64,000 bases of DNA from Colletotrichum lupini (Eukaryota; Ascomycota; Sordariomycetes; Glomerellales; Glomerellaceae), in contig NC_064678.1 of assembly GCF_023278565.1 (NCBI RefSeq), positions 5,394,001 to 5,458,000 of the forward strand, given 5' to 3'. Below the pieces are notes generated by a model. That model saw nothing but the letters and a program-made list of their open reading frames with translations. It did no database searches and was not told where the DNA came from. The position numbers were made by a program, and so were the translations under genes. Every line of letters starts with the position of its first letter. Positions within the stretch are counted from its first letter, which is position 1. Below are positions 5,684-41,048 of the stretch, piece by piece.

Positions 5684-6744
5684 TCAAGTCTCGTCGCCCT
5701 CAACGGCGGCCGCCTGCGCCGCCTCCGCCATTCTTCTCTTCTTGGCGAGCTTCTCCTTGTTGTCATATGCCCTCTCGGCGGACCGCTGGCGCTTCTTCAA
5801 AGCGAATTCACTGCCCATCTCCGCAAACATCATCTCCGAATTGGTCACGTCCAGTATCTCCTCGGCCAATTCTCCACCGTTAATGCTTCCGCCAGAATCG
5901 ACATGGAGAAGAGTCGCTGCATTGGTAACTCTTTCCGGAGTTCTCGTCGTCGTCATCCAACACCTCCATCCAGAGGACCTCGTCTTCGTCAGAATTCTGC
6001 TCGCGGGCCAAAAAGGCATAGCCTTTCTGGTCTGCGAGGTCATCTTTGAAGTCCTCGAGCTCCTCGGCCGTGCGAAAGTCACCTTCTTCCAAGGGGGAGA
6101 GCTCTCTTCCATAGTCGGTATCCTTGCCACTGTTGTCGGACGACGAGAAGGTGACGCTGTCGTCCTCATCTCCTGCGCCATCTTCCTCGTCTTCGTAGTC
6201 CACGCTCTGCTCCACATAGTTGACTTGGGTCGTCGCGGCTCGGACACCTCGAGCGCTCTTGTTGCCCTCTGTGGACAGCAGCGCGGCCCTAGACTCCTTG
6301 GGCAGATCACTCTCGCAAGTCGGGTTGGATCATTCCCTGCATCTCCTCGAAAGTGTGAAGTCTTGCGCAGGTGCGGGTGATTGATTCCGCCTCGCGCTGA
6401 AGCTTGCGCCTCATGAACTCCTTGCCGGCCTAGAGATTCATTAGTCGGTGTCGCTTTGAGACCTGGGTAATCAAGGCGCCTCGTACCTCCGTCTCCGCAA
6501 CCCATGCCTTTAACATCTTGCTGCGAGCCTCGACGGCCAGTCTGAGCTTTTTGTTGACTGGTATGTTGGCGCTGTAGGGCAATGTCCTTTTGTAAACTAT
6601 TGTCGTGTTCAAAGACGAGTGTTGTGACTTGGGAAAATACGAGAAAGCGCAAGAAGCTCGAGAAGCAAAAGGACCTCCAAAGGACCTGGCGTGCAACAGG
6701 TTCCCCGTGAGATGGTATGGCGGCGTAAAAAAGGTAAGGCGCAA
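5684..6744 (-). pseudogene. Island gene remnant: acidic/basic protein of unknown function, frame-broken
   Basis: Unrecognised protein. Read 3'-ward from about 6,744, one frame gives '...NKKLRLAVEARSKMLK...'. A good intron follows, about 6,485 to 6,432 (donor GTACGA, branch ACTAAT, acceptor CTAG), and the frame continues 'GKEFMRRKLQREAESI'. At about 6,325 the frame must shift by one base to continue into a strongly acidic stretch ('DYEDEEDGAGDEDDS', ending at 5,880). A further shift near 5,925 is needed to reach the C-terminus, a basic 'KKRQRSAERAYDNKEKLAKK' region ending at 5,684. Neither shift can be explained by a plausible GT-AG intron, so I call it broken. The acidic middle and basic tail suggest a nuclear protein. 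A perfect copy of the island palindrome lies at 6,577. The N-terminus is uncertain. Confidence 0.55.
6577..6587. repeat. Island palindrome GGRCAWTGYCC, exact copy
   Basis: Reads GGGCAATGTCC, in the 5' part of the broken acidic-protein gene. This is the leftmost exact copy in the window. Confidence 0.7.
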
Positions 6745-7240
6745 AATCGCGAAGCTGTTGATTGTATGAGGTAAGAATTCTCAAGACGTAAGAAAGGTAG
6801 GTAAACAAATCAAAATGAAAAGATTTCTGAATCCCTCGTGCTGCGTAAGGGCGATTAGCCGCGAAGGTAAGCTTCCATCGGGGAAGGTTAGAAGAAAGAA
6901 AAGAAGCTCGTGAAGTGAGATGCGCCGCTGGGATGGACTGCCTCCTGTAATATCCAGTCGGGCAGGAAGGCGCCAGCAGAGCATCGCGCCTCCCCCTCGT
7001 GCCTTCCCTTCTACCAAGGGTACTTCGGGGGTGCAACTTCGGAACATTGACGACTCTGATACGTATCGTCTCGACTCGGCTAATCCCACAGAAAGAGTAT
7101 TTCACTCTTTAAGAAACAAATTCGTAACTTTCGTCTTTGTGACGAGCCTCCAACCCACTTCTTCTCCTTCTCTCGCGAGAACTTCCACCTTTTCAGAACA
7201 CGGAACTACTGAATCTCATCCGTCAATCTTCAACTGATAA

Positions 7241-7251
7241 GGACATTGCCC
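7241..7251. repeat. Island palindrome, exact copy
   Basis: Reads GGACATTGCCC, 167 bases upstream of the start codon of the 208-aa gene, in its probable promoter or leader. Confidence 0.7.
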
Positions 7252-7407
7252 TCAGGACCGTATTTACTCCTTTTCAACTACATTAATTTGTCTCGTTCTG
7301 CCACGCGGCTACTCCCCCCCCCCCCCTCCCCCAGACGTAGCAAAGGCGTTCGGATCTTCCAAAAGGCGTTGTCCTTTCTTGTTCTCAATTCCGAAACCAC
7401 ATTCGAG

Positions 7408-8147
7408 ATGGCTCCCTCCACTTCGAAGGAACTCCCTGATGTTGAGATTGATCTTCTGAGAACGGAGATCTGGGCTCAACCAAAGGACGCTTCACTACTC
7501 AGTGTGACCGAGCAGATCATTTTAAACAACCTTGAAGTGATTGCGCGTCAGAACACGCTGATCTTGCAACTGTTCATGAAGAACGACCAAGAGACGTCCA
7601 AGGCCAAAAAGTTTGTCTTCTGGTTCTTTGTTCCTATCTTGCAAGAGAGCTGACGCTGTATAAAGCATTTCAAGGGCAAAGTCCACACGTAAGAGCAAAA
7701 GGAGAAGATTAGACTCCTCAGAGGACGAGGGAGAGTCGGACGATAATGAGGACCAAGCTGCGACAAAGGTGTTGCACCAGCGCTTCTCGGAAAAGATGCT
7801 GGAAAAGTATCGTAAATTTATCCGTGAGACCGGCTATACACCTTATGTGAAAAAGGGCAAATCCATTACCATGGCGAAGAACGCTGTGGAGTTCCGAGAG
7901 GCGTTGGCCGATGGGGTTGAGTCAGACGACGACTCTGATGGTAAGTACAATGCCCTTCACTACTATACCATTACTGATCTGCCACGCAGCCGGCTCGATG
8001 TATGCCCATTTCCAGAAACTCTCAGAGGATGCGTTGCAAGCGGTATACTTGTCGCTTGGCCAGCGCCTGAAAACCAAACCCGCTTCCTCTGGCAACGGAG
8101 ATGGATCTTCGAGGGCCATGAACTCTGACGAGGCCCTTTCGTCGTGA
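7408..8147 (+). CDS. Small island protein of unknown function (208 aa)
   Basis: Three exons: 7408-7610, 7675-7940 and 7990-8147. The introns are GTTTGT...AAG (with a gctgac branch point) and GTAAGT...CAG, and the frame is kept. I do not recognise the family. Residues about 10-70 look helical and amphipathic ('VTEQIILNNLEVIARQN'). A basic, NLS-like run follows ('KSTRKSKRRR'), then an acidic stretch and a Lys-rich helical region ('RFSEKMLEKYRKFIRETGY'). The tail is low in complexity. The second donor site overlaps a one-mismatch copy of the island palindrome (7945-7955), and a perfect copy lies 167 bases before the start (7241-7251). It is transcribed away from the remnant at 5,684-6,744 and towards the recombinase gene. 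A nuclear role is inferred from the basic/acidic composition only. Confidence 0.6.
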
Positions 8148-8744
8148 GGCCTGACCGGTCTGTGGTCTTTCCAAGACTTCTTCCTGCGTTTCTGCTTCGT
8201 TGTTTTTCCAAAGTTTCTTTTAGCGAGCGCAATTTGAGAGGGGGGGGGGCGGGAGGAACGGGTCCATGTCCGCACAAGACCACTTAGATCTTGATGTGTA
8301 TATCGACCTGAAGGGCATTGACCTCGGTGGATCTACAACTTGCAAATAAACATAGATTAGATGGCTACATTCAATGAAGACGAACAACATTTGCTGATGA
8401 ATTTAATCGGTGTCGCGACTTCAATCGGCTGAATTAACAAGGATGATCACGAGACTGAGCAAGGGTATTGAGTTGCATGGTAGAGTGGTGATGCCACTTA
8501 GTACATAGTATTTCATTTCATAAAGAAGCCAGTGTCAGCAATAAAGCAAGCATCTGTGAGCCACAAGGAAAAGGGCAGAAATCAAAACCCTCCCACTACT
8601 CCCCCCTGGTCTCTCGTATCGTCCCTCTACTCTGGACTCGCAAATAGTCTCTTCTCTTACAAAACATAGATAAGAAAGAAACATCCGAAACGCCCCCCAT
8701 CTCTTCAAGGGTCCCCAAAGGGCCCCAAAGGGCATTGTCCCCTG
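8148..8744. other. Intergenic region between the convergent 208-aa gene and the recombinase gene
   Basis: No gene seen. The region holds a one-mismatch palindrome at 8,313-8,323 and a perfect copy at 8,730-8,740, which is 4 bases beyond the recombinase stop codon. A poly-G run lies at about 8,240-8,250. Confidence 0.5.
8730..8740. repeat. Island palindrome, exact copy
   Basis: Reads GGGCATTGTCC, 4 bases downstream of the recombinase stop codon. Confidence 0.7.
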
Positions 8745-11558
8745 TCAGATCGTACCTGGTACCGAAGAGAGAGTTGTGCTGCGCGTGCCCAAAGGTTTGT
8801 ATGGCCTCGCCGAGAGATTCGTCAAAGACTGGATGTTATAGAGCCTGGTTCCAACCCCTTCGTGAGCCTTGGGGATTTTGGTGCAGGGCACGAGAAGGAC
8901 ATTGCCCCCTTGGCGGCCGATGGCCGGCAAGGGCGTCTTGGGGCCGCCCATTACGACGCCAGGGAGGTCGGGATTGTAGCGTGCTTCCTCGAGCTCTTGG
9001 ATGCCCGACAAGTTCCAGCCACGAGACTTGCGCTTTCGGGCCCGGTCGTTTTTGTTGCGCTTCTCCACTACATCAGAAACTCGGAAACCGGGGCCATTCC
9101 AGCCCAGCTCCTCCTTGAGGACATCGTGCCGCTCGATGGCCTCCGGCTCCTCCGCCCAGGAATAGTCTACACCAGTCAGGCCAGTGGAGCTTGACTCATT
9201 AACATGATCTTCCAGCTCCTTGATTGTCTCGAAAACCTGGACAGGGGACCCGGCCGGCGCACAGCTAACGTATAACTCGCAAGCGAAACCAGGTGCCCTC
9301 TCCGCCTTCATGACGTGGTTGGCTCGTCGGAGCCAGGACTCGTACCCTACGTGGTACTTAGTGGCTTGGTGCCTGGTGAGATGGGCCAGGGAGGGCCAGA
9401 TCCGATCCTTCATTTTCTGACTTGCCGTGATGTCATTTGCGCACAAGTGACACTTGTATACGGGAACGTCATGGGGCCGATGGTCGAGCAGCATCTCCAG
9501 GACATGACGGACTGCATCCAGGAACGGGACCTCGGCGGCCGCTTCTCCGTAGTTAGGCTCCTCGGCAACGGTCATGGCGGCTGGGCGGGGCTGGTCGTCG
9601 GCGTCCGGCTCCGCGATTGCGTCTTGGCGTACAAACAAGTCATCATCAGGATCTTCGTTGCCGTCTTCAGACGTAGACTGCCCAGGAGGGCAATGCCCTT
9701 GTGTGCGCATGGATGCTCTGGCTCTGTCTACCAAGCCCATAGTAAATCGGTCCATTCGGTTGACAATCTCACGCTTTCTGGCATCTACATCTTGGTTCGT
9801 GATCTGATACGATTGCTCCTCAATGACCTGAGAACGCGCCGTTTCGTTGGCGACTCGGCGGAGACATCGCTTCCGGGACTTGATGGCGGCCGGATCATCC
9901 AACTTCAGCAGAAGGTCGTCCTCGGCAGCAAGCTTGTGGTATAACGCATCGGACGCCGGCCCGATGATTGTCTTCATTACGGACTCGGATAGTCGGAAAA
10001 GGACATTGCCATTTAGGTCACGTTCCATCTCTTCCTCTCTCTGCTGGTGATTTTCGTTTAGCCCAACTGCCGTCAGGTCGACACGGCGCCGGAGGTCAAG
10101 ATACGAGCGCTCGAGCGTTGCGCTCTCCGCGTCGTGGCCCATGATTTGTCTGGCCACGTCCAAGCCGTACGTTTGCGCGATTGTGTCGGCGGCGGACCTT
10201 CTGAGAGAGTAAAAGGTAATGGCTTCGGTCATGCCAATTTCCTTTGCCCTGGTCTTGATGTAGTCGGTCAAGGCCCCCGAGGTTGCTGGCTTCTCTGTGA
10301 TCCCTAGTCCTCGCGGGGCCCCAGCGAGAATGATGGGCTTATGAAGAAACTCCTCTTTAACCCGGATACGATTGGAGTCGCCAGTAAGGAGTTCTTCAAT
10401 CGTCGAAACTCCCTCCAAGGCCTGTCGCCGAAGGGCAATGACCAAAAGGCGTAACGCCGGAGAGAACGGAAGATTTGCCTGTTGGCGCGGAGATCGGAAC
10501 TCGCTGTAAAAATCCATGTCAGCTCGGACTGGAGAACGGGCAACAAAGTGTACTTACAAGTCCGTGAAGGAAGAGGTGAGGCCCTTTGCATTCTGGGCGA
10601 CGCCCTTGTCGAGTTTGGACTGCAGACTAGAGTCCTTGATGTTGCGGATCCTTAATTTCAAGGTGAACTCTCCGAGCTGCTCTCCTCTGATGAAATGGAC
10701 GTCGTCCCATACGATGAATTCTGGCCCGTTGTCCTTGAGGATCGTGGCGCCTCGGTGTTCTCTGGGGGCCCCAAGAGATCCGGGGCGCAGCGCGCAGCAT
10801 CTCGCAACCAGCCATGCCCAATGATGAGCCTCTGCCAGCTCGTAGCAGCTTGTTCTTGTTGCGTCTTGGTCTATGAGATAAATCACCTCGGCGTACGTCA
10901 AGATGGACTTCTTGATGCCTCGGTCAGACAACAGCCCCAACTCTTGACCGATGTAGGCGCACGCCTCGTTCAGTCTCTGTTTAATTTGCCACGTCGGAAT
11001 TTTGGCTCCAATGACTATTCGGAAGTGTTTAGATTAGTACAGTGTACTTTTGGTTGGTCATGAGCAGATGGAAGACGTACCAGGTCGGGATTGAAACTTG
11101 TATTTGATCCAGAAGATGAGCTTGTCAACTTTGGCGCGAAGGGTGCTATAGGCGATATAGTTGTGAGAGGAATTTCGAGAGGGGGTGAACTTGGCGGCAA
11201 ACATGATATACTCTCGCATCAACTGTGTGACCTCTTCCCAGCTGCCATTCACGGGGTCCGGAAAGCTGGCTGCTTCGAGCTCTTCGTCTGTGCAGTCTCC
11301 GAGCTTCTTGACGAGCTTGACGAATCTCTGATAGGAGTCCAGAATCCTGTTCTCGTCTTGCTGAGTTTTGATCGAATGAGTCCTGTGGCCCACTGATCCC
11401 GCAGCGAGCCTCTGTGCTTCGGCGACAGCACTCTCGACGTTGAAGGATTCCCCCTGCCCGTCGTCGGCGACGTTCTCTAGCAACGCAGCGAGTCCTCTTC
11501 CGCTGGTACCTCCTCGAGCCCGAAGGCGCTGCAACGAACTACTGCTTCTAGAGGCCAT
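8745..11558 (-). CDS. Tyrosine recombinase, DUF3435 / Starship-captain-like
   Basis: Three exons on the minus strand: 11558-11081, 11014-10558 and 10503-8745. Both introns are GTACGT/GTAAGT...AG and the product is 897 aa with no frame break. DUF3435-type tyrosine-recombinase features can be read in order. The N-terminal helical core-binding region is about residues 100-230. The box I arginine is in 'ALRPGSL' (about R236). Box II is 'FYSLRRSA', with Tyr in the HxxR histidine position (about Y410/R413). 'IMGHDAES' supplies about H435, and 'ERSYLDLRRR' supplies the nucleophile (about Y446). The C-terminal half holds a likely Cys/His finger ('YKCHLCANDI' followed by HLTRH and later His) and a Lys/Arg-rich region. 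Such proteins are often auto-annotated as 'FluG domain'. The predicted reaction is strand exchange at specific DNA sites through a 3'-phosphotyrosine link. An island palindrome overlaps the start codon (11553-11563) and another lies just past the stop (8730-8740). A Crypton-type recombinase is the main alternative. Confidence 0.85.
8897..8907. repeat. Island palindrome, exact copy, in coding sequence
   Basis: Reads GGACATTGCCC inside the recombinase C-terminal region. On the coding strand it supplies codons for G-N-V. Confidence 0.7.
9688..9698. repeat. Island palindrome, exact copy, in coding sequence
   Basis: Reads GGGCAATGCCC inside the recombinase gene. The codon register differs from that of the 8,897 copy (it encodes G-H-C-P on the minus strand), so protein conservation alone does not explain it. 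Confidence 0.7.
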
Positions 11559-11563
11559 TGTCC
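11553..11563. promoter_or_regulatory. Island palindrome overlapping the recombinase start codon
   Basis: On the coding strand this reads GGACAATGGCC, so the ATG of the recombinase lies inside the palindrome core (one mismatch to GGRCAWTGYCC). The flank AAAA before it matches the extended AARGGRC form. A protein that binds the palindrome here could block recombinase transcription or translation initiation; that is inference. Confidence 0.5.
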
Positions 11564-12033
11564 TTTTGGTGTATCTAACAACTATGCGTCCAGGAAGACT
11601 CGAGAAAGGGGACTGAGACGCGTTCCGAATGAAGAAGTAAAAGCGGGCGAAACAGAGGAGAAGATGACCCCGGAGAGGGACAAGCGGTCTCAAAAGTCCA
11701 ATGGCGTTTTGGAGAATCCCAAGTCGCGGGAGGGAAAATATAATAGTCCTCAAAAGTTGAAGAACATCCAGAGAAGAAAAACGAGTCTCTTGAGAGCAAA
11801 TAATGACGTTGTCAAGAGGAAAACCAAGCTTTGAAGGTCGAGAACGGTTGAGAAAGAATGGCGTTCTCTACAGCCAAAGGGCAATGCCGTACGAGACAGT
11901 CGCACTTCCAGAGAGTCGAAGGACAATGTCGTACTCGCGAGGATGGGCGATGAAAGTCAGAATTGTCCCTGAGGGCAAACCACGAGCGATGAAAATAAAT
12001 CGGGAGAGCAAACGACCTTCTGAAGTGCCGCAA

Positions 12034-12044
12034 GGACAATGTCC
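12034..12044. repeat. Island palindrome, exact copy, in the 40-bp array
   Basis: Reads GGACAATGTCC; core of one array unit. Confidence 0.7.
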
Positions 12045-12467
12045 CACAAGCGAGTCTCGTAGAAGAAAGAGATGGCTCGAAGAGTCTCAAAGAAAACAGT
12101 CGAGGAATGATCCCTAATCGAAACGGTCCTTGAGGGCGAGAAGGCTCCTTGAAAGTCAAAGAAAGACCCGCAAAGCAGTGGACGAGTCCAGGGCGAGTAA
12201 AGAACGGTCTCAAAGACGGTCAGGAGTACAATGTCGCCAGATAGAAGAGCAGCTCCGGAAGTCAAAGAGGGCAACGCCGTATGAGAGAAGTAGTCTCCAG
12301 AATCGAAAAGACACTGTCGTACAAGAGGACGATTCTCGGGAGTCGGAATGGTTCTTGAGACAAACCGAGAGAGCAGTGGACGAGTTCACTTTGAAAGGCG
12401 TGATGACTATCTCAAGGAGGTGAGAAGTACAATGCCGTAGGAGGGAGAACAGCCTCTGGAGTCGAAA

Positions 12468-12478
12468 GGACAATGTCC
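12468..12478. repeat. Island palindrome, exact copy, last unit of the array
   Basis: Reads GGACAATGTCC and is preceded by GAGTCGAAA, the conserved end of the previous unit. Confidence 0.7.
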
Positions 12479-12510
12479 TGCGAGAGAAGTGTAGCCTCTG
12501 AGTTGAAAAG

Positions 12511-14217
12511 ATGAGTCGTTTTCTTTCTTGGAAAAGAAAGCTACGCGGCCTCAAGTAGCCCGAAGAGAAAAGGAGATCTTGGAGGTCTCCCGAGATGACA
12601 GTGACAATAAAGAGCCGGAGGCAACGAGAGCACGACTGCTTTCGAAAGAAATGAAGAGAATCGCGATCGGACAGAGCACACAGTTTTATAAAAAGAGCCG
12701 GCGGTCTGCAGAGAAGCGAGGCTATCGAGCGTATCTCTCACGAGTTAAAGTTGCATCACGTCGGGAGATGCTTTTTTTCTCTCACGCCAGAATTTCTTAC
12801 AGGCCACGCAGGGCACACAAAAGTTGTGTGCCCTGAGTGTGCCGATATGGCCCATGTACAAAGGTACCCCCCGACGGTGACTTGCGACAGCACGAGGTAC
12901 TTGGAAGACTTTGTGACGATGAGTCGGGAAGGAGGGCACTGTACATCTCGTGCCTGCCGGGGCTATCGAGCTCGCCAGAAGAGGGAGGAGTGTGTGAGCG
13001 TGGCTGTCGGCCGATAATGTTCCGCTCACGACGTCATGGCGATGCTCGTCCGTGCCTGCCATGGCAGCGGGCAGCAACGAACCACTCCTGCCTCAAGCAG
13101 GAGGGTCCCAAACCAGAACTCTCCGCCGCTCTCTGCAGAGGAGATCTCCTGATCGCCAGTAGAAACGATTAGGCATCACGGATGAAGGGGCTGATGGGAG
13201 AGGGTGACTTATGATTGGTAAACTATTCATTCTTAAGAAAAGGGCATTGTCTTTGCTGCCCCTGAGTACCTGGCAATGAACTGAGGGCTTGCGTCATGAT
13301 TGACCCTCATCATCCGCACTAGTAATGAAACTTGCCACGACAATGCTTTGGTGATGGGAATAGCTTCAAGTGTAAGGTTGTGGCATGGCGGCAAGGTACT
13401 TCTGCATGGTGGTGGTCTGGGTGTGGCGCAGTGGTATCTGTGAGGGGTATCACGAGCGAGCAGCCCGGTCGACCAGACCATCGGCCGTTGGCCTGGTGGG
13501 TGACGAGCCGAAGGGGTGGAGTCCGCGACATTGCAGATTCCCCGTTCAAGAGACAGATCCTGCAAAAGTCCGTCGAAATTTGAACGTGGTCGGGACGTGT
13601 TTGCGGCGAACCATGGTGCTTCCGTCGGGCGTGTGCCTCGATTCCCCAATGAGGAGAAGAGAGGAAATGTTTCTTCGGGCGTTCCTCGTCGAGATCACAA
13701 ACTTGTCTCGATCCTGGGATTTCCCCGTCGAGATTGGGGTGGACGTGGGAATATCTCGACACCCAGCTTCCGGGGAGAGGGTGCGCCACACCTCGGCGCG
13801 GTGTTGAGTGCGCACGGACTCTTCGGCAGAGCGACGTACCTTTTCTGGTGCCCACATCTCCGATTCCGCTCGACTACACCTCACCTTCCTCTTGCCTGAA
13901 CAGATCGACAACGATTCCTTCTCACCCCTTTGCGAAGACATTGACGACAGTCGAGCGTGCCGTCTTACCTGCCTGCCGTTCTGTCGTACGTCCGCAGACA
14001 GACAAGCCAGGTCCTTCCTGCACCAGAGCTTTCAGCCACAGCCCCTTCACCCGCTTCGACTTTGATGGACATGTCACTTGGTCAAGTCTCTGGAGGAACA
14101 TGTCATTGTCACTTTCTGAATAATCATCTACATTGTCCTATAGCCATAGGCCAGCAACGATGCGCGATGGACTCGCGCAAGGTACGCACGCCATCTAAGG
14201 TAGAGAGAGGCCAGAAG
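12511..14217. other. Non-genic or decayed stretch of the island
   Basis: About 1.7 kb without a gene I can support. Several overlapping open frames occur on both strands (for example minus 13,546-13,941 and minus 12,745-13,077, the latter with a CVPCVACKKFW run), but none has a start, splice or domain I trust. It holds a perfect hairpin at 12,811-12,833 and a one-mismatch palindrome at 13,242; weaker palindrome copies lie at 13,338 and 14,128. It may contain the remains of further genes. Confidence 0.4.
12811..12833. repeat. Perfect inverted repeat with 10-bp arms and 3-base loop
   Basis: Arms GGGCACACAA and TTGTGTGCCC flank AAG. It lies about 300 bases beyond the 40-bp array, on the side away from the recombinase. 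It could form a hairpin in DNA or RNA; its function is unknown. Confidence 0.6.
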
Positions 14218-14261
14218 GGCATTCCCCCTTTCCTCTGAGAATCTCCTCGAGGCACTGAGGC

Positions 14262-17803: not shown

Positions 17804-18008
17804 TGTCGGATTGGAAGTCCAATTCGACCGCGGCATACAGCCGACTGCGCAGGGGCCAATTGGGGGCCCTATTTACGATTATCATAGCCAGCCTAACCTA
17901 CGGTTAGAACCTCTTTTTTATACCTACTACGCAGATATTTATATAGTTTAATTAAACTCTTCGTTAACTACGGTTCGAACTAACTACTCTATAATAAGGA
18001 TATTAATA
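17804..18008 (+). repeat. 5' LTR of copia copy 1
   Basis: 205 bp. It aligns with the LTRs at 24119-24323, 26326-26527 and 32969-33173. It is the least degraded at its 5' end, retaining TG and GC-rich words such as CGACCGCGGCATACAGCCG. Confidence 0.85.
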
Positions 18009-26320: not shown

Positions 26321-26325
26321 GTATA

Positions 26326-32500: not shown

Positions 32501-32968
32501 ACTAGCGTCGGAGGTCTATAGTATAGTTAATAATATTAACCTCTCTTACGCAATTTTAATAACGCTAAAAAAGATTACCGATCGAATTAGCCTTTTACTT
32601 ATTTTAACGGTTATTTATATAGATTCTTACTCGCTATATAAATACCTCGTTAAATTAGGAACGACGAAAGAAAAGAGGCTTATAATTAATATTATAGCCT
32701 TTAGGTAATCGTACGAAAGGCGCGAAATACTCGAGATCTATTAGATTAATAATAAAAATAACCTCGTAGACACTTTTATAAAAATAGTATTAAATAAGGG
32801 ATTAAAGTAATTCGTAAGTAGTAAAAAAGTTATTATATAAATAGAGGGATAAGTTATATAAAAAGAGTAAAGAAAAGGGGGAAAAGGAGACGACTTAGTA
32901 AACGGGCCCGAGGTCGAATTATACCTCTAACTATAGTAGTTAAATCGATAAAAAAAAGAGAAAGTTAG

Positions 32969-33173
32969 TATTAAATTAGAAATCTAATTTAACTGCGGTA
33001 TATAGCCGACTACCTAGGGGCTAATTAGGGGCCCTATTTACGATTATCGTAGCTAGCCTAACTTATAGTTAGAACCTCCTTTTTATACTTACTACGTAGA
33101 TATTTATATAGTTTAATTAATCTCTTCGTTAACTACGGTTCGAACTAACTACCCTGTAATAGGGATACCAACA
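32969..33173 (+). repeat. 3' LTR of copia copy 2
   Basis: 205 bp, ending GGGATACCAACA and followed by GTATG. Confidence 0.8.
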
Positions 33174-33178
33174 GTATG

Positions 33179-33403
33179 TCTTCGATCGAAAGGAGCACAC
33201 TTTGCTCCCGCCGAAACCGCCTCCATAGGCTCTCCCTGGCGTCAAATGAACTCCTGTAATGAAATGAAACCAATCTGCATAAAAACTCCAATCTATAAAG
33301 TGCCAAAAAATATTCGCCCTTTTCTCTTCTTCAGATCGATGAACTACGTGGCGAACTCTGTGGGGTGGGCATGATATTTGTGTAAATGCTGGGTGCGGCG
33401 CAT
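33179..33403. other. Spacer right of copia copy 2
   Basis: No gene recognised. Base composition returns to normal abruptly at the end of the retroelement. Confidence 0.5.
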
Positions 33404-34378
33404 CTAGCTCACGATGCACGACGATGGTCTGCGTGTATTGTTAGACGGCGGGTCTTCGTCTTTGTCTTCGTCATCGGCCTCGGGCCTCACTTTCTTGTCG
33501 TCTGTCTTGTCCCCATCGACTGGGACAATGTCCTTCTCTTCGGCCGGAACAACTTTGTCTGTCTCGGTTTCGGCGTCTTTAACCGTCTCGGGTTTGGCGT
33601 CTTGAACCGTCTTGTCCCCATCGACTGGGACAATGTCCTTCTTTTCGGCCGGAACAACTTTGTCTGCCTTGGTTTCGGCGTCTTTAAGTTTGGCGTCTTG
33701 AACCGTCTCGGGTTTGGCGCCTTGAACCACTTCGGGTTCCACCGTTGTGACTACTCGAGTGACGTGGTCTGCGTCTGGCTTCAGGCCCTCGTCTTTGGCT
33801 CCTTCTTGGGTCTTCTTTGCGGTGAGCTCGTCCTCGGCGCCCTCCTCTTCCTCTTCCTCGATGGTCTCAAGCTTCTTCGACACATGTTTTTGCTTCATTT
33901 TTCTATTGCCCTCTTGTCCGTTGACCTTTTTCTTGCTGCCCTCTTGTCCGTTGGCCTTTTTCTTGCTGCGAGTGGAATACCGGGCTCCGGAACGTTGAGA
34001 GACTGAGGCGGATGTTCCATTGTATCTCGAAAGCAATTCTTCATTCGGAGGCAAGATCACTCTCGACATGGAAGACGCTCGGTTCTCCTGAAGAAGCGAA
34101 ATGATTCGAGCTCGAGCCGCAGCGCGACGTTGCTTGACCTCGTCGATCATCTGAGGGTCGTGCAGTGGGTCAACATCCCAACTCTTGCGAACTTCGTCGG
34201 CATGTTGCTGCTCTCTTCTTCTCTTTCGTGCCTGACCTTGCTATTTGATCACATTAGACAATATGCAATTAAAATTGTTCATGATTCAACGTACCGGAGT
34301 CTCAACGAAGGCTTTCATGAAGCCGTACGCCTCGTCCAGAGTTGGCAACTCTTTGCCCTTGTCTTTCTTCGGAGGCAT
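33404..34378 (-). CDS. Lys/Glu-rich repeat protein of unknown function, 306 aa
   Basis: Two exons: 34378-34295 and 34240-33404, with a 54-nt intron (GTACGT...AATAG) and the frame kept. The start is the ATG of MPPKKDKGKELP. I do not recognise the family. The N-terminal third is basic and helical ('QARKRRREQQHADEVRKSW', 'EVKQRRAAARARIISLLQ'). Next is a duplicated NLS-like unit (SKKKANGQEG / SKKKVNGQEG), then an acidic run. The C-terminal half has a tandem repeat of about 30 residues whose core is 'DKVVPAEKKDIVPVDGDKT'. The two repeat units each contain an exact island palindrome (33,523 and 33,628), used as codons for D-I-V. The low-complexity charged make-up suggests a disordered nuclear protein; no enzymatic motif is seen. 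Confidence 0.6.
33523..33533. repeat. Island palindrome, exact copy, in coding repeat
   Basis: Reads GGACAATGTCC (plus strand), in the second protein repeat unit of the 306-aa gene. Confidence 0.7.
33628..33638. repeat. Island palindrome, exact copy, in coding repeat
   Basis: Reads GGACAATGTCC (plus strand), 105 bases from the previous copy, in the first protein repeat unit. Confidence 0.7.
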
Positions 34379-35344
34379 GGGGAGCCACGACTGCGAGTAC
34401 CTGGTTGGGTTCTAGTGAGGCCTCAGAAAAGGTCAGTGTAAAGATTTCGAATAAGAAAGGACGGAAGCCAGGTAGAATAGAAGAATGGAAATAATGCAAG
34501 GGAAAAGCAATCCCGATGGGCTTTGTTGAGAAGCTAAGCAAAGCAGAGCCCGAGGAAAGGGTTGACAAATGAGAGTTCGGGATATCGATGAATCGAGGGA
34601 GTAGATTTAAAAGAGTAATAACACTGGAAACGATTTATATTTCGAGGGGACAGGGAAGGAGCAAGAATTTGATATCGAGATCTCCTCGTGGAAGGAGAGA
34701 CGTGGGGAAGAAGAGACGTGGGGAAGAAGAGACGTGGGGAAGGAGAGACGTGGGGAAGAAGAGACGTGGGGAAGGAGCAACAATATACAAAGAGAATAAT
34801 AATTGAACATGAATCTCGAGAAGAATTGAAGTACAGCTACGTAAAAGCAAGGTATACGGCTGGTAGTATGTGTCACGGAATGTGTGTCTCGGATCAACGA
34901 CACACACACACTGACGGCCATATGACACAACCACTGAACTATACAACTGAGTGCCAAACAATTGCTGTAGGTGCTCTGATAGAAGGGCATTCAAGGGCTT
35001 AGAATAGTTGGATCCCAGATAGCAGAGTATTCCTCGGTTTTGGTGACTCTGCAAAGGTCCCAGGGACTTTTCGGGTCACATGGTTGAGGGAGGGCGAACA
35101 GGAACAAGACAGCACAGATTCATATTGGACTTCGAGATAGTTTTCACATGGAGGAACCAAGACTTCTTCATTCATTTGATCGAAAGGGCGACGTCATCAT
35201 CGGGATGATCAATTGACCTATCTGCCTATATGAAACTCTGACAACTCTCTCAAGACGATTTCACGTGCTCCGGAGCAGATGAAGCTTGATCGGAAACTGT
35301 TGAGGGTGATTTGAATACGGTCTCTTCCCTCGTCCCCTCCTTCC
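34379..35344. other. Intergenic region with minisatellite
   Basis: About 960 bases between two minus-strand genes. Apart from the 16-bp minisatellite (34,699-34,778) and CA-rich sequence near 34,890-34,910, I see no gene. The recognisable subunit stop of the SNF2 gene marks its right end. Confidence 0.45.
34699..34778. repeat. Minisatellite, 16-bp unit x 5
   Basis: Unit GACGTGGGGAAGAAGA with phase starts at 34,699, 34,715, 34,731, 34,747 and 34,763. Variants have GGAG for AAGA. It is purine-rich on the plus strand and adjacent to no clear promoter. Confidence 0.8.
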
Positions 35345-38300
35345 TCAAGATAGGTCTGTCGAATTCAGCATGTAACCATGAGACTGATGAGTGAACTCCA
35401 AGAATGGGCCACTGCCCTTCTTATCCTGTACGAAATCGGGAACGTCGACAAAGTCAAGGTCCAGTTTGAGTGCCTCTTCCTGCTCCACGCGGGAAAGCAA
35501 ATCCATGATCTTGCTCACTGTCTGAAACTTGAAGTCTGAACAGCTTCTAATGTACTGTTCAATGGCCGAATTAGGAGAGGTTATCCGATAGACGTGGACT
35601 GCCTCAACTTGACCCTGTCTGTAGCAACGAGAGAGAGCTTGGAGCTCCTCTGCCCTTACCCAGGACGACTCGCACAAAATGACATTGTGCGCTGCAGTGA
35701 GCGTCAAGCCGACTCCACCGGCTCCCAAAGTGATCAGGACGGTAGCGGCCTTGTCGTCGTTCTGTACTTGGAGGCGGACCTCGTCTCTGTACTTCTGCGA
35801 TTTCGTTCCATCGAAACGGAGAACATCTGGCAGTAAAGTGCCGTTGCCCTTTTCGTAGCGATGTTGAAGGGACTTCTCGACCACGTCGAGGACCTTCGTA
35901 AAGCGAGAAAACACAAGAACTTTGAGACCAGGCTTGTCGCTATGAATTGTGAAGATCTGGTCCACGATAGCCTTGACTCGAGGCTTGTTGACGTACTCCT
36001 CCGGGTCGGCGTCGTTGAGCTTCTTGAGCCACTCGTTGCGCTTCTTGAAAGAACTCTCGTGATCCTCGTCTTCTGCGTCGTCGTCGTCGTCGTTGACGTC
36101 TAAGTCGTGGTCTTTGTCAGTGGTGACGTCGCCTTGTTCGCTTGGCAAGCTCTCGCTCTCTAAGTCTTCCATCTCATCAGAATCGTAATCTGTCTTTCCT
36201 GAATCGTGCGGAAGCCATTCGGGGTCGTCGGGGTCCGAGTCACTGTCTTCGGACTCGTCAGGGACGTAATCGTTCTTCTCGTCATCCTCCCAGTCCTCTT
36301 CTTCCCCTGATGTTTCACCACTGCCTGATTCATTGTTTCCAGCCGCGCCTCCTTGACCCAGTGCTTCAATGGGGGTCTGTCGGTTCTTGATCTTTGACTT
36401 TCTTCCACTGCCCTTCTTCACCCACTCGATAAGCTGAGTAGCATCAAGCCGGTCAATGTCAAAGCCCTTTTCCCGGCACCAGCCTTCGAAAGCTTCAGTA
36501 TTTAGATCCTTCAGAGGCTCTTGGTAGAAAAGGTCGCAGACGGATATCAACTCTGCCTTGGTCGCCTTCGCTAACGCTGCGGCGTGTCCGGCGGGAGTGA
36601 CTGGTCCTGGGTCCTTCTTCTTCATCCTTGCGAGTCGATAGAATTCGTTGGCCAATTCTGCTACTTCTAAGCAGGTCGTTCGAGACAAATTGGCAATGAC
36701 GTCGTGCTCAATAAGACCGGGAAGGTCCAGAACGCTTTGAGGACGAGCGACCAGGAACGCATCCAAGACAATCGCGAGACTTTCCGCGTCACATTCCCGG
36801 GAAGGGGCTCCGTTGATGATGGTGCCAAAGCAGGCAACAAATGACTCGAAAGAGTCGAACGGATTTCCTGGCATGAACTCCAAGATGCCATAAATGTCAT
36901 GCCACCGATTTGGGATAGGTGTGCCCGAAAGCCCCAAAAAGGCATCGTACTTGAGGCTAAGAACGGCCTTATGGGAGATGGACTTGATGTTTCGGAGGCC
37001 ATGGACCTCGTCAACAATGAGAAGAGGTATAGTTAGACCAAACAGACTCATGGCGTGTCCATCAAGAGGGTGGTTGACTCTGTAGGGCCTCCACTGCGAC
37101 TTCTTCACGCCACGGACTTTGAGATCTTGATCCTCGCTGAAAAGGTATCCAATCTTTGTCGCAGCCTGGAGCTCTTTGTACCTTCTCATGAGGAACTGCG
37201 TGCCAACGATTACAATGTCAATTCTTCGGGAGAGAATGTTATCCATGGTAATTTGTGGGTTTTTTAGCACCAAGATCTTGACTTGATGGGTCTATGAAAC
37301 GAGGTTAGCTTCAGAAACGGAACATTTCCAGCAAAAAAAAAGGCTCACATCTTGAAGATGGAAGCGGATCTCATCCTTCCATGTCGAATGTAGGCCTGGC
37401 GGTGCCACAATGACGACGGGTCCCTGGTATCCGTTGCCCTTACGAAGGGTGACCGTGATGGCTGTCAGCGTTTTGCCGAGGCCCATTCCGTCGCCGAGAA
37501 TGGCCCCCCTTCCCGGGCCACGCAGCATGGTACGCAGTAACGGCGCAGCAACCTTTTGCCATGGACGAAGTTCCGTGGCGAGGGCCTCCATAGTCTCGCT
37601 GCCCAAGGCATCAGGGTTTCCTCTTATATAATGCTGCACAATCATCGTCAGTGTCTGGAGCAGGAGACCCATTAAGAAAGAAAAATTGATTGTAAGACTT
37701 ACAGACAGAGCTCGCCATTTGAAAAGGAATCTCCGCATCAAGATCTCTTGGTTGTCCCTGGTCCCGAGGAGCAGTTGGTCAGCGGGACGCTTGTTGAGCC
37801 AGTCACAAATCGTGTCGATGTCTCTGTCCAAATCGAGCTCTCCAGAGTCTAGCTTGGCCTGGATGGCGAGCCTCAATTGAGGATCCTCTCGCTTGGACAG
37901 CAAGTTCTTTTGCTTTGAGTTTCTCGGTTGCTTTGCGGCGAAAGCTTGGAGATAATTGTCCGGCCCAATTTGGCCATTTCCGGGAGCCTTGTGTTGCGAT
38001 TTGACGAGAGCTGAGCCGCAAAGACCATCCAAGTCCATATCGAGTACAAACTCGTACAGGGATGATGACCAATGGCTCTTGAGGTTCTCAAGGTCTTGCT
38101 CCGATGTCGAAGCGAGAGATTGATCGGACATGGGTCGTTGGAAGCCTTTCGAGAGGGCCTTTTGCGTGATCGATCTCTTTAGGAGATCAATCTCCAAGGA
38201 ACTTGTGCAAGATTCTCTTCTTGTGGTCTCGCGGGAGTACACTTCGTCTAGTGCCTTTCGAACATTGTCTATTCTGGCTTCGATCTTGCTGTCAGATCCT

Positions 38301-38482
38301 TCATCCTCCGCTAAGGCGATGGTGTGCTCCAGAATCTTGGTCTCGTGGTAAAGTGAATAGAGGTGACCGTCGTTGGTGGACAATTCGCGGTCGAAGATGC
38401 GGGGATTGGTAACGCGACGCTTCTTACGAGCACCTTGGCGCTTACGCCGCAGCTTTCTCTTCTTGGCATCATGAGGCGCCAT
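35345..38482 (-). CDS. SNF2-family DNA-dependent ATPase (Rad5/Rad16-like lobe motifs), intact
   Basis: Three exons: 38482-37703, 37633-37349 and 37291-35345, giving 1,003 aa with no frame break. The N-terminus is very basic (KKRKLRRKRQ...KKRR, nuclear localisation likely), then a helical region of unknown role. Lobe 1 has Walker A 'GDGMGLGKT' (about 307-315), 'VIVAPPGLHSTWKDE' (motif Ia), DEVH (about 449-452) and 'LGLSGTPIPNRW' (motif III). A highly acidic insertion of about 130 residues follows. Lobe 2 has 'VLVFSRFTKVLDVVE', 'ITLGAGGVGLTLTAAHNVI' (motif V) and 'ALSRCYRQGQ' (motif VI) about 88 residues from the C-terminus. The family uses ATP to translocate on DNA and remodel nucleosomes or DNA-bound proteins. 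No RING or bromodomain is seen. It is divergent from the 558-aa gene at 39,286, a pairing that mirrors the decayed pair at 14.3-26.1 kb. Confidence 0.85.
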
Positions 38483-39285
38483 GAGGGAGGTTCGTGAGCT
38501 TGAGTGTCGTTTGGTTGCAATTCAGGAGACTCGTGTATTGACAGTGCCCAAGTCACACTTGGGATTCGGAAATGGTGTGTGAGGTACTAAATGGAAATCC
38601 CAATTAGTCATGTAAAGTCGCAAGAAAGCAAAAAAAAAAAAAAAAAGGAAAGAAAATTGCGAAAAGAGAATGGCTCTTCTTCATTCGTTTGAATGAGATC
38701 AAGCCGATCAATCAAACGTACCTTGAGTCTGATGTACGTGTTGCAATCGAAATCTCTAGAGGTCTCGGGGCTGAAAAGATGTAACACTTCTTTCTAAGAA
38801 GACGTGGGAGCATGGAGGTTGTATGAGGAAAAGGAAAGGGCCCATTAGATAACTACCTTGCGAGGGGTCAAGGGCAAGTCAAGTGAACTTTGGGAAGGCG
38901 CGACCAACAACAATTGTTTATTCGTGGTCCTTCTCTCTTTCACTCTTTGGTACCCAACTCACTTTCTTTTTCTTCAAGGAAAAAACAAGGCCATTCACCT
39001 TTTTCCTTTTTCCTTTTTTACTCTTTTCATTCATTCCCTTTCCACCACCGCCTCGATCTGGGAAGCTTTCACCCATCTATACGCTCCTCCCCAAAGGTAT
39101 GTCAAAAGTATCAAAACAGCTGATATGGCCACTCCCTCATTGATTTTGTTTCAAGGTACTCAATTTCTCGCGAGTCATCTGCCTTCGCTCATAAAGGCAA
39201 GGCCCGGTGCGTCTTCATTCGATTACTCAAGCTCCCCCTACACGTCCTTACTTCGATAAAGGACAACGCCCTCGCTCGAGACAAC
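38483..39285. promoter_or_regulatory. Shared intergenic/promoter region of the second divergent pair
   Basis: About 800 bases between divergent starts, the same size as in the first pair. It contains an A-tract at about 38,630-38,646 and pyrimidine-rich leader sequence at about 38,930-39,080. GGACAACGCCC, a one-mismatch palindrome, lies at 39,261-39,271, 14 bases before the start of the 558-aa gene. An intron in the 5' leader of that gene is possible. Confidence 0.45.
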
Positions 39286-41015
39286 ATGGCCGAAGGACGA
39301 GTCGCGTGGACGACTTCAGGAAGGTCTTTCGATGATGAAATCGCTGGAGGAACGAAGTACCAAATCTTCGAGGTACGCCCCGGAATGATCGGCTGGCAGC
39401 TTGGAAAGGCCAAGACCAACAACGAAGACGAGGTGATGAGCCAGTTCATGTCCGCCCACAAGTGCGGTCCATGGCCCGTCTCTGCCGACGCCGCTTACGA
39501 CGTGTCGATTGATGACACCCTTGTTCACCCTGACAACCTTACCAAAGACCTTCAAGCTGGCAAGAAGAATCTCGTTCTTCATGTAGGGTACTTTATCCCC
39601 GGCGAGACGGCAGATGGACCCAAAGGCTCGATTTCGGAAATGAAAGTGGCCGGCCACCAAGCGGCGTTGAAGCGTTCGGATATTTCCGATGATCAGATCT
39701 ATCAGGTCGTTTTCCAAATGGGCACATTTGGAGGGGCGGCAAAGGCCTGTGTCCTCGCCGATCCTGATGGAAATGGAGTCTGCAATCAGGTTGTCCTCCC
39801 GTCCGGACTCAAGCACGTCTTTCTCTTTGAGGAGTTCCTCGACCTCGAGACCAAAAACAAGAAGATCAGAGCCCGCGGCGTCGGCAACTTGATTGGTAAA
39901 GTCACCGATCCTGCGGCATGGAACAAATGGGAGAAGTCATCGGGCGTTTCGCGGAAGAAAGCGGGGGAAAAGAATCCCATTCCTGCGGATGGCCTTGAGG
40001 CGGACAATGAAGATGCACCCAGCGACGAGACGGGCAGGGTTATCAAGCTCATTTTCGAAAATGAGCACACCCTAAAGGCCAAATTGGCGAGCCTTGACGC
40101 GAGAATGAGTACAGACTCGCTCGAGCCTGAGACCGTGGAGACCATCATCCAAGAAATCGAGGCTTTGGGCCTAGAGCACCCAGGTACAGCATCCAACAAG
40201 AATTTGGTCCGGATGCTCTTTCCAGATCAGCCGTTCGAAATCCATCAAGCAACCGAGGCCCTCAATGAATCCAAGGTACGATATTCAAGGTCCATTGTAC
40301 AAGGGACAAGAACTGACATCGTGAACAGAAGCTTTGGCCGAACCTTTTCAAGCTCCCTGTTGGTCCGCAGCCCACCCCCGAGCTACTGTTTCGAGTGGGC
40401 CATGCCCTCCGCAATGCCTTGCGTAACCGCACCATCGTCAAGTACAACAACTTGGAGACTTTCTTGTGTCTTCTTGTGCTCATGGACCCGGACAAGTCCA
40501 TTGCCAATGCTTCAGTGTCGAGCCCCGAATGGACGAACTACGTTGACCAGGCGTACACAGCTGCGAAGCTGTTGCCACCTTCTTCTTCGGAGGGTGAGAG
40601 AAAGTCGGTTACGGGGGGAACCCCACTCCGTCGTAGAGACGTCGTGACGAACCTCGTACTGCACAAGCTTACCGAAGTATCAAAGGTCATCGACCTAGCC
40701 AGTGCTCACATTGAGCAGCAAGCCGCCAGGACCTTCGGGTTCAAATCCCTACCGCCTACTATGACGGCATCGGCTGCTCTCAGAGGCTTGGCTAATGAAC
40801 ACGAGTACGGCGCCGCCCGGGTCTATGTTGAGGGCCTCTATCGTACCATTGCAAAGAAGTTTTCTCTTCTTTATGGTACAGTCATCGTTGAGGAGATTAC
40901 GAAGCTTAAGAACGAAATTGAGGGTCTTGAGGTAGAAGACAACGAGGACACCACCCCAAGTGATAGTGGGACGAGCGAGGCAAGCGAGAAAGACGTCGAG
41001 ATGGGGGGCAACTGA
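39286..41015 (+). CDS. Island protein of unrecognised family, 558 aa, divergent partner of SNF2 gene
   Basis: Two exons: 39286-40275 and 40329-41015. The intron is GTACGA...ACAG and the frame is kept. I do not recognise the family. Residues 1-240 look like a globular mixed alpha/beta domain ('FDDEIAGGTKYQIFEVRPGM', 'GTFGGAAKACVLADPDGNGVC', 'GLKHVFLFEEFLDLE'). The middle and C-terminal parts are helical ('LEPETVETIIQEIEALGLEH', 'GHALRNALRNRTIVKYNNLE', 'EYGAARVYVEGLYRTIAKK'). The last 35 residues are acidic. No transmembrane segment, signal peptide or metal cluster is seen. Its truncated paralogue at 14,262-15,534 also sits head-to-head with an SNF2 gene, so the two proteins probably act together. 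A one-mismatch palindrome lies 14 bases before the start and an exact one 22 bases after the stop. Confidence 0.75.
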
Positions 41016-41037
41016 TACGGCCTAGTTCAATGAGGGA

Positions 41038-41048
41038 GGGCATTGCCC
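41038..41048. repeat. Island palindrome, exact copy, rightmost
   Basis: Reads GGGCATTGCCC, just past the stop codon of the 558-aa gene. It is the last exact copy in the window; none occurs in the following 23 kb. Confidence 0.7.

What the first reader, a model, noticed from the sequence alone, without database searches (positions are those of the whole stretch)
6577..41048. Island-restricted 11-bp palindrome GGRCAWTGYCC dispersed through coding and non-coding DNA
Reading the whole window I find ten exact copies (6577, 7241, 8730, 8897, 9688, 12034, 12468, 33523, 33628, 41038). A further ~16 have one mismatch: 7945, 8313, 10001, 10433, 11553, 11879, 11921, 13242, 14218, 15685, 16706, 17288, 24431, 25070, 25528 and 39261. 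With equal base use an exact match is expected about once per 524,000 positions, so about 0.1 per window. None of the exact copies and only one single-mismatch copy (52,033) lie outside 6.5-41.1 kb, and none fall in the two retroelements. Many copies extend to AARGGRCAWTGYCCYTT. They occur in introns, UTRs, intergenic DNA and in more than one codon register, so shared protein sequence does not explain them. This suggests binding sites for a protein encoded by the island (recombinase, unknown-family protein or the Cys/His finger) or a very small dispersed repeat.
Basis: partly seen in the sequence, partly recalled or inferred. Interest (0 to 1): 0.88.

Follow-up and report, generated by a model that had tools for sequence, protein, structure and literature searches.

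The report
Palindrome tags a tRNA-splitting fungal transposon
One 17-letter near-palindromic DNA word recurs about 30 times inside a single 35.5-kb stretch of a fungal genome that splits a tRNA gene in two, clusters nowhere else in that genome, and is likely a landing site for a protein that the inserted, probably mobile, stretch would itself encode.

Summary
The motif is real. GGRCAWTGYCC occurs 10 times exactly and 20 times with one mismatch in the window. All 127 exact copies in the 63.4-Mb genome were placed: 10 lie here, and no other stretch of this length holds more than 2. The 'island' has hard edges: its flanks are the two ends of an intron-containing tRNA-Asp gene (5631 | 5632 and 41137 | 41138). 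All 10 exact and 18 one-mismatch sites lie inside. The two retroelements inserted into it have none. It encodes a DUF3435 tyrosine recombinase open in its exons, two SNF2 ATPase genes and two copies of an orphan protein. The half-sites do not covary, sites lie in coding, intron, UTR and intergenic DNA, and coding copies exceed a synonymous-codon null (4 exact against 0.43, 0 of 5000; weaker but present when the tandem pair or the richest exon is left out). Relics lie beside two other tRNA-Asp genes; one has a two-mismatch version of a site at the matching position. Best reading: element-wide dimer binding sites for an element-encoded protein, most likely the recombinase. No binding evidence exists and no second full copy was found. 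Two tested Starship features fail.

The parts
5621..5631 (-). last 11 nt of the 3' exon of a tRNA-Asp gene; host 3' flank lies to the left
   Evidence: matches 13 other tRNA-Asp loci; in 12 of the 13 the match ends at 5631, in one at 5630
5632..41137 (.). inserted element (35,506 bp; about 22.1 kb without two retroelements)
   Evidence: flanked by the two ends of one tRNA-Asp gene
41138..41191 (-). tRNA-Asp intron (most) and complete 5' exon; 25 nt between the two tRNA pieces are missing
5684..6780 (-). possible small gene at the left end, no Pfam family
   Evidence: open frames only
7409..8128 (+). possible small gene, no Pfam family above cut-off
   Evidence: open frames only
8745..11558 (-). 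DUF3435 tyrosine recombinase, three exons as read, Cys/His C-terminal region seen by eye
   Evidence: Pfam PF11917 E 4.1e-6 over its cut-off; matched piece has no stop; homologues
14262..15534 (-). orphan protein B
   Evidence: paralogue of B', about 30-33% identity
16170..26146 (+). SNF2-family ATPase gene, interrupted by a retroelement
   Evidence: PF00176 and PF00271 in pieces
17804..24328 (.). AT-rich LTR retroelement inserted into the element; no motif
26328..33178 (.). second AT-rich LTR retroelement; no motif
33404..34240 (-). possible gene C; two exact motif copies in its internal 105-bp duplication
35345..38521 (-). second SNF2-family ATPase (SNF2')
   Evidence: PF00176, PF00271; best solved matches RAD5 and DDM1
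39286..41015 (+). orphan protein B' (558 aa spliced)
   Evidence: no relative in protein search
6577..6587 (.). motif, exact
7241..7251 (.). motif, exact
8730..8740 (.). motif, exact, just past the recombinase stop codon
8897..8907 (.). motif, exact, in recombinase CDS
9688..9698 (.). motif, exact, in recombinase CDS
12034..12044 (.). motif, exact, upstream of recombinase
12468..12478 (.). motif, exact, upstream of recombinase
33523..33533 (.). motif, exact
33628..33638 (.). motif, exact (tandem duplicate of 33523)
41038..41048 (.). motif, exact, about 90 bp from the right edge; two-mismatch counterpart in a relic on C3
7674..7684 (.). motif, 1 mismatch
7945..7955 (.). motif, 1 mismatch, overlaps an apparent 5' splice site
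8313..8323 (.). motif, 1 mismatch
10001..10011 (.). motif, 1 mismatch, recombinase CDS
10433..10443 (.). motif, 1 mismatch, recombinase CDS
11553..11563 (.). motif, 1 mismatch, overlaps the recombinase start codon
11879..11889 (.). motif, 1 mismatch
11921..11931 (.). motif, 1 mismatch
13242..13252 (.). motif, 1 mismatch
14217..14227 (.). motif, 1 mismatch
15685..15695 (.). motif, 1 mismatch, between the divergent B and SNF2 genes
16706..16716 (.). motif, 1 mismatch
17288..17298 (.). motif, 1 mismatch
24431..24441 (.). motif, 1 mismatch
25070..25080 (.). motif, 1 mismatch, SNF2 CDS
25528..25538 (.). motif, 1 mismatch, SNF2 CDS
39261..39271 (.). motif, 1 mismatch, just upstream of the B' start codon
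40397..40407 (.). motif, 1 mismatch, B' CDS
7361..7377 (.). extended 17-bp motif, 2 mismatches
16659..16675 (.). extended 17-bp motif, 2 mismatches
35836..35852 (.). extended 17-bp motif, 3 mismatches (could be chance)

Best explanation
The palindrome AARGGRCAWTGYCCYTT recurs about 30 times across a 35.5-kb stretch that splits a tRNA-Asp gene and carries a tyrosine recombinase gene, and its copies are likely binding sites for a homodimeric protein that this stretch encodes, most probably the recombinase itself through its predicted Cys/His C-terminal region. Shown: the sequence, its confinement to the stretch, the split tRNA, the genes, the DNA-level excess in coding sequence. Inferred: the stretch is a mobile element; each half-site AARGGRCA would hold one subunit; the dense group of sites upstream of and across the recombinase start codon would give self-regulation; the sites spread over the whole body would let the protein tell element DNA from host DNA and gather it into one folded complex for excision or integration, perhaps opened by the two SNF2 ATPases. 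It would thus work like TNPA on the repeated sites of En/Spm, but over the whole element and not only near its ends.
For: Ten exact sites against 0.066 expected at the rate in the rest of the genome, P 4e-19; no other stretch of that length holds more than 2. 17-mer with up to 4 mismatches per kb: 2.30, 2.00 and 1.51 in three element segments, 0.00 and 0.39 in the flanks, 0 and 0.15 in the retroelements. A scan for any palindromic 6-bp half-site picks out this word in the left and middle part of the element: 22 hits; the best word that is not a variant or frame shift of it has 8. Information lies within about 16-17 bp. Across the 27 sites the +/-3 positions do not covary: A-C 9, A-T 4, G-C 5, G-T 5, other 4 (counted by eye), as expected for two independently read half-sites. 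Synonymous-codon shuffles of 11.8 kb of CDS: 4 exact and 10 with up to 1 mismatch observed, means 0.43 and 3.09, 0 of 5000 reach either; with one copy of the tandem pair left out 3 and 9, reached by 7 and 1 of 3000; without recombinase exon 3, 2 and 6, reached by 48 and 26 of 3000. Sites are densest in the 940 bp upstream of the recombinase (6.4 per kb) and one overlaps its start codon. Like the cluster, the recombinase has no second copy in the genome. A relative 95% identical over 65% of the recombinase (P0001) could still encode both exact sites of exon 3, one with a residue change that could lengthen the match. A relic on C3 has a two-mismatch version of the site at the place matching 41035.
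Against: No binding, expression or mobility data. One full element only; no second full copy, and no DNA of the homologues could be read. The distant recombinases P0002-P0004 show no excess of positions able to encode the motif: 1, 0, 0 against shuffled means of 0.53, 0.48, 0.43. AlphaFold models of the recombinase (P0002) and of B' are poor (pLDDT 44 and 32), so no DNA-binding fold is shown. Pfam finds no zinc-finger family in the C-terminus; the Cys/His pattern is read by eye. The SNF2'/B' part has few strong sites (island2), although it belongs to the same insertion; there the palindrome scan does not rank this word first. Without recombinase exon 3 or gene C the coding excess is much weaker. 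A 1-bp centre does not fit a tyrosine-recombinase crossover site (recalled: 6-8 bp), so these could not be its cutting sites.
Confidence: 0.45

Rival explanations
1. The sites are bound by the orphan protein B (and B'), a DNA-binding partner, with the SNF2 ATPases as its remodellers, so the element marks or silences its own chromatin.
For: B/B' have no relative in two searches of a 5.8-billion-protein collection, each scoring about 8,000 candidates, and are each paired head to head with an SNF2 gene, two such pairs in opposite order. Sites flank both B genes (14217, 15685, 39261, 41038). The B' relic on C3 carries a two-mismatch version of the site.
Against: No DNA-binding domain found in B'; model of B' unusable; the SNF2'/B' half has the fewest strong sites.
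Confidence: 0.25
2. The sites are operators for a host or element transcription factor that co-regulates the element's genes; copies in coding DNA are by-products or decoys.
For: Sites upstream of or at the start codons of the recombinase, B' and the small gene at 7409, and between B and SNF2.
Against: Many sites lie in CDS and 3' ends, where operators are not expected, and coding copies exceed a synonymous null. A host factor's sites should recur elsewhere, but no other group of more than 2 exists.
Confidence: 0.15
3. A very small repeat (about 17 bp) spread through the element by copying or insertion.
For: High copy number and a sharp boundary. One pair (33523, 33628) is a true tandem duplicate, and the purine-rich stretch 11.9-12.5 kb contains degenerate repeats around the motif. 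The distant homologue P0004 has gaps of 5 and 3 residues at sites 9685 and 9998.
Against: No shared flanks beyond isolated positions +11 and +13. Site 10430 falls in a gapless segment conserved in all four homologues; at 9685 and 9998 the nearer P0002 and P0003 show at most one gap residue. None entered the retroelements or flanks.
Confidence: 0.08
4. RNA hairpin: the palindrome acts in the transcripts.
For: Most sites are in or near genes.
Against: A-C at the +/-3 pair in 9 of 27 sites (counted by eye); the stem would close on a triloop; sites also lie between genes.
Confidence: 0.03
5. Chance or composition, or shared protein sequence.
For: Genome-wide the pattern is 3.7 times its reversed control, partly from one dispersed AT-rich repeat (9 of the 35 outside RGGRCAWTGYCCY copies). 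10 of 14 coding-labelled sites share a register.
Against:: the excess survives dinucleotide, codon and genome-wide nulls.
Confidence: 0.01

Closest known systems
En/Spm (CACTA) subterminal repeats bound by TNPA (passages of PMC2613891)
   Same: Many copies of a short motif inside a mobile element; in En/Spm an element-encoded protein binds them and they act in excision and in transcription control
   Different: There they lie near the ends (159 and 732 bp in soybean Tgmt*) of a transposon with TIRs; here they run through the whole body, coding DNA included, of a tyrosine-recombinase element without found TIRs
Starship giant transposons with a DUF3435 'captain' (passages of PMC12153272 and PMC12134995)
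   Same: Recombinase family, fungal host, size above 20 kb; some Starships target a small RNA gene (5S rDNA)
   Different: Recombinase is not the first gene and points outward, no TIR or direct repeat found, target is a tRNA-Asp gene, dispersed palindrome
tRNA-integrating bacterial islands and prophages (recalled)
   Same: Tyrosine recombinase, insertion within a tRNA gene
   Different: Eukaryotic; the tRNA is left broken here, not restored
Dispersed sequence tags such as DNA uptake sequences, Chi or parS (recalled)
   Same: Short words spread through coding and non-coding DNA and read by a protein as a mark of identity
   Different: Bacterial; none known to me from a eukaryotic transposon

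Membership tests
Starship superfamily | DUF3435 tyrosine recombinase | tested here: met
   PF11917 26.4 bits, cut-off 25.8, a narrow pass; R, K, R, H and Y positions shared with homologues, by eye
Starship superfamily | Captain is the gene at the 5' end (inward orientation is recalled) | tested here: not met
   Recombinase 8745-11558 on the minus strand, 3.1 kb from the left edge, two possible genes between, transcribed toward the edge
Starship superfamily | Short direct repeats at the ends | tested here: inconclusive
   25 nt of the tRNA target are missing at the junctions, so a repeat cannot be judged
Starship superfamily | Terminal inverted repeats (18 of 20 in PMC12153272) | tested here: not met
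   400 bp at the right end against the window give no inverted match at the left edge; a TIR lost with the missing end cannot be excluded
Starship superfamily | Shown to move; empty site in another strain | not testable with these tools
   No related fungal genome held; only other intact tRNA-Asp genes of the same genome
En/Spm-like TNPA site system | Repeats confined to subterminal regions | tested here: not met
   Sites from 6574 to 41051 in an element from 5632 to 41137
En/Spm-like TNPA site system | Element-encoded protein binds the repeats | not testable with these tools
   Needs EMSA or DAP-seq
Crypton | Tyrosine recombinase with GCR1_C-type DNA-binding domain (recalled) | tested here: not met
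   No such domain listed for the scanned recombinase exons or P0002/P0003
tRNA-gene integrating element | Insertion lies within a tRNA gene | tested here: met
   3' end at 5621-5631 and intron plus 5' exon at 41138-41191 in matching order and strand
tRNA-gene integrating element | The element restores the tRNA it enters | tested here: not met
   25 nt of the tRNA missing; no whole copy at either edge

The most novel reading that the evidence does not exclude
The element writes its identity into its own DNA: an element-wide palindrome, kept by selection across genes, introns and spacers, is read by an element-encoded protein that packs or protects the whole element during tRNA-targeted integration and transfer. 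It would be a eukaryotic counterpart of DNA uptake sequences or parS, in a tRNA-Asp-targeting branch of the DUF3435 elements.
Probability: 0.3. Interest if true: 0.88.

Novelty: new variant of a known kind. Interest (0 to 1): 0.72.

Why it matters
How giant fungal transposons tell their own DNA, often tens of kb long and full of foreign cargo, from the host's is open as far as I know. A dispersed, selected recognition word would give a handle: a computable signature for finding and bounding elements without knowing their cargo, and a direct binding assay. A tRNA gene as the target, left split, would add a target class to the 5S rDNA and short motifs reported for Starships. Searches listed no open-licence paper that reports it (one search listed 10 of 13 papers); subscription papers and preprints are not held.

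Tried and rejected
Small inserted repeat: disfavoured by flanks and protein alignments. RNA hairpin: disfavoured by A-C pairs. Shared protein sequence: rejected by synonymous shuffles. Regular spacing: CV 1.0 over all gaps of 31 sites, P 0.61; the first 25 sites alone give CV 0.70, P 0.04, too weak to use. Other DUF3435 loci in the genome: eight matches in all; the seven outside the element, at five places and most of them AT-rich and full of stops, have no site with up to 1 mismatch in about 1.5 kb on each side. The 19-kb region around the best of them is too AT-rich (GC 0.36) for the palindrome scan, so whether other captains have their own word stays open. Structure models were too poor to search. 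Viral contigs: no relative. The protein search with B' found nothing. Rfam and tRNA scans of the window were empty; the split tRNA was found only through genome similarity. Sites at a splice site and at start codons were noted but do not explain the set. The background set included loci fetched because they hold the motif, so its 10 exact background hits are not used. The logo uses 27 of the 31 element sites; 7671, 33625 (duplicate), 35836 and 40394 were left out as weak or duplicate.


Full report
1. The observation. GGRCAWTGYCC occurs 10 times exactly and 20 times with one mismatch in the 64-kb window; dinucleotide shuffles give 2.69 on average. The window is C5:5394001-5458000 of a 63.4-Mb genome in 12 contigs. 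There are 127 exact copies in the whole genome. I placed all of them: 44 of the form RGGRCAWTGYCCY, 74 more listed with a pyrimidine before the core, and the last 9 by splitting that search. Ten lie in the island. No other stretch of the same length holds more than two (for 118 sites; for the rest, by eye). Outside the island, 9 of the 35 RGGRCAWTGYCCY copies belong to one AT-rich dispersed repeat. At the outside rate 0.066 exact copies are expected in the island (P 4e-19).

2. The island's edges. The DNA just right of the last site matches 14 other places in the genome. I read these as tRNA-Asp(GTC) genes with an intron after the anticodon. The name is my reading of the sequence: ARAGORN reports 'tRNA-???, anticodon gtca' at 7 of the 14, 'tRNA-???, catt' at one, tRNA-Thr at one and nothing at 5, which I put down to the intron. 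The window holds the intron and 5' exon of such a gene at 41138-41191, and the last 11 nt of its 3' exon with the usual 3' flank up to 5631. Order and strand are those of one tRNA gene cut in two. So the island is an insertion of 35,506 bp (5632-41137), about 22.1 kb once its two AT-rich LTR retroelements are set aside. Twenty-five nt of the tRNA are missing between the pieces, so the exact insertion point and any direct repeat cannot be read. All 10 exact and 18 of the 20 one-mismatch sites lie inside these edges; 47353 and 52032 lie outside.

3. Relics. A search with the C-terminal exon of B' finds only the two copies of the island and one relic, at C3:847671-847954. The aligned part ends 0.3 kb from the 3' end of an intact tRNA-Asp gene and is colinear with the right end of the island; at the place of site 41035 it has AAGGGGCATTACACATC where the island has GGAGGGCATTGCCCATT, two core mismatches. 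That it decayed from a full site is inference. The 8.5 kb to its left hold no more of the element and no motif cluster. A relic of the SNF2 gene lies about 0.6 kb from another tRNA-Asp gene on C1. A chance relic falls within 1 kb of one of 14 such loci with probability 4e-4. A third relic, of the first part of B' (C3:911174), is not near a listed tRNA-Asp gene (63 kb away). One tRNA-Asp copy (L063) lacks about 17 nt of its 3' exon, with a breakpoint within 1-2 nt of our right junction, and another place (L078) has only about the last 16 nt of the gene. Recurrent tRNA-Asp targeting is therefore likely, not shown.

4. The genes. The recombinase (8745-11558, minus) matches DUF3435 (PF11917, E 4.1e-6, 26.4 bits against a cut-off of 25.8), has no stop in the matched piece and no second copy in the genome. 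Four relatives were found: one 95% identical over 65% of it from an unnamed source, two from Colletotrichum (41 and 44%), one from Fusarium xylarioides (29%). The host is thus a fungus, probably Colletotrichum (inference). The rest are two SNF2-family ATPase genes and two copies of an orphan protein, B and B', about 30-33% identical, arranged as two head-to-head B/SNF2 pairs in opposite order. B' has no relative among the roughly 8,000 candidates scored in each of two searches of a 5.8-billion-protein collection. AlphaFold models of the P0002 recombinase and of B' are unusable (pLDDT 44 and 32).

5. The motif itself. Aligned on their centres, 27 sites share AARGGRCAWTGYCCYTT. Beyond it information is low, except one isolated position at +11 (0.54 bits oriented, 0.47 unoriented) and a weaker one at +13 (0.46, 0.25), which I cannot explain. 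The positions at +/-3 do not covary: A-C 9, A-T 4, G-C 5, G-T 5, other 4 of 27, counted by eye; a stem would avoid A-C. This is the pattern of a protein dimer whose two subunits each read one half-site (inference). Unbiased scanning of 6-bp half-sites at spacers 0-8 finds this word at 22 hits in the left and middle part of the element; apart from its variants and frame shifts the next word has 8. In the right part it has 4 hits, no more than other words there, and in the flank tested it is not among the top words. Density of the 17-mer (up to 4 mismatches) is 2.30, 2.00 and 1.51 per kb in the left, middle and right parts, 6.4 per kb in the 940 bp upstream of the recombinase, 0.00 and 0.39 in the flanks, 0 and 0.15 in the retroelements. 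The right part, with SNF2' and B', has few strong sites: three exact, two of them a tandem duplicate.

6. Selection on DNA. Shuffling synonymous codons over 11.8 kb of CDS leaves 0.43 exact and 3.09 sites with up to 1 mismatch on average; 4 and 10 are seen, and 0 of 5000 shuffles reach either. Two of the four exact sites are the tandem pair. With one copy of that pair left out, 3 and 9 are seen and 7 and 1 of 3000 shuffles reach them; without gene C, 2 and 8 (74 and 1 of 5000); without recombinase exon 3, 2 and 6 (48 and 26 of 3000). Tested one exon block at a time, only recombinase exon 3 stands out strongly (4 against 0.94, about 1 in 300); four other blocks fall between 1 and 9% and the rest hold no site or show no excess. 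Of 14 coding-labelled sites 10 are in one register, 2 and 2 in the others. In the recombinase alignment site 10430 falls in a gapless segment conserved in all four homologues; sites 9685 and 9998 align with P0002 and P0003 with at most one gap residue, while P0004 has gaps of 5 and 3 residues there, and 8894 lies in a poorly aligned tail. So insertion of a 17-bp unit is excluded at one site, unlikely at two, and untested at the fourth. The 95% identical relative could still encode both exact sites of exon 3, and at one of them a glycine-to-lysine difference could extend the match; the distant relatives show no excess.

7. Reading. The best account is that the sites are bound by a protein of the element and let it regulate itself and gather or recognise its own DNA. 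I favour the recombinase because the cluster and the gene share one unique home, and because the densest sites are at its own start. B/B' is the main rival. Binding, mobility and regulation are all untested. A site with a 1-bp centre is not a tyrosine-recombinase crossover site (recalled), so I do not claim that the recombinase cuts there.

8. Known kinds. From passages read in PMC12153272 and PMC12134995, Starships have a captain at the 5' end, mostly direct and inverted terminal repeats, and target short motifs or 5S rDNA. This element has the recombinase family but not the captain's place or found TIRs, so I do not file it as a Starship. From passages of PMC2613891, En/Spm has subterminal repeats bound by TNPA: the nearest working model. 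Paper searches for a tRNA target and for a palindrome listed no report for such elements. In some searches the Starship papers listed have 0 occurrences of 'tRNA gene'; the one paper holding all five terms, PMC13373834, mentions tRNA only in an enzyme name (passages); the two papers were seen as a listing only. The library holds open-licence papers only.

Against the calls I corrected the gap count at two recombinase sites, the runner-up of the palindrome scan, the isolated +11/+13 positions, the lengths of the two tRNA scars and the papers cited for novelty, and added the leave-out codon tests.

Noticed in passing
window 14262-15534/16170-26146 and 35345-38521/39286-41015: Two head-to-head pairs of an orphan gene (B, B') and an SNF2 ATPase gene, in opposite order, diverged to about 30% (B) and 45% (SNF2) identity: an old duplicated cassette.
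   Followed up: partly
C5:5962322 (L063) and C5:4772799-4772869 (L078): One tRNA-Asp gene lacking about 17 nt of its 3' exon with a breakpoint within 1-2 nt of the island's right junction, and one left with only about its last 16 nt: possible excision or insertion scars.
   Followed up: partly
window 17804-24328, 26328-33178; L057; L058: The same AT-rich (GC about 0.30) LTR retroelement family sits twice in the island and again in the 10 kb on either side of the window; one copy interrupts the first SNF2 gene.
   Followed up: partly
window 11600-12500: Purine-rich stretch upstream of the recombinase made of degenerate repeats around the motif, several resembling AAGGRCAATGYCGTACGAGA, an asymmetric variant.
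   Followed up: partly
motif sites, position +11 from the centre: An isolated G preference (0.47 bits even without orienting the sites) outside the palindrome; unexplained.
   Followed up: no
window 34690-34774: 16-bp minisatellite GGAAGAAGAGACGTGG, 5.3 copies, between gene C and SNF2'.
   Followed up: no
window 8700-8730 and elsewhere in the island: CCCAAAGG is also over-represented (7 against 0.3 expected), perhaps a second element word or extended half-sites.
   Followed up: no
C2:1756240-1757536 (L059, L060): The best other DUF3435 match in the genome has three stops in its two matched pieces and lies in AT-rich surroundings.
   Followed up: partly
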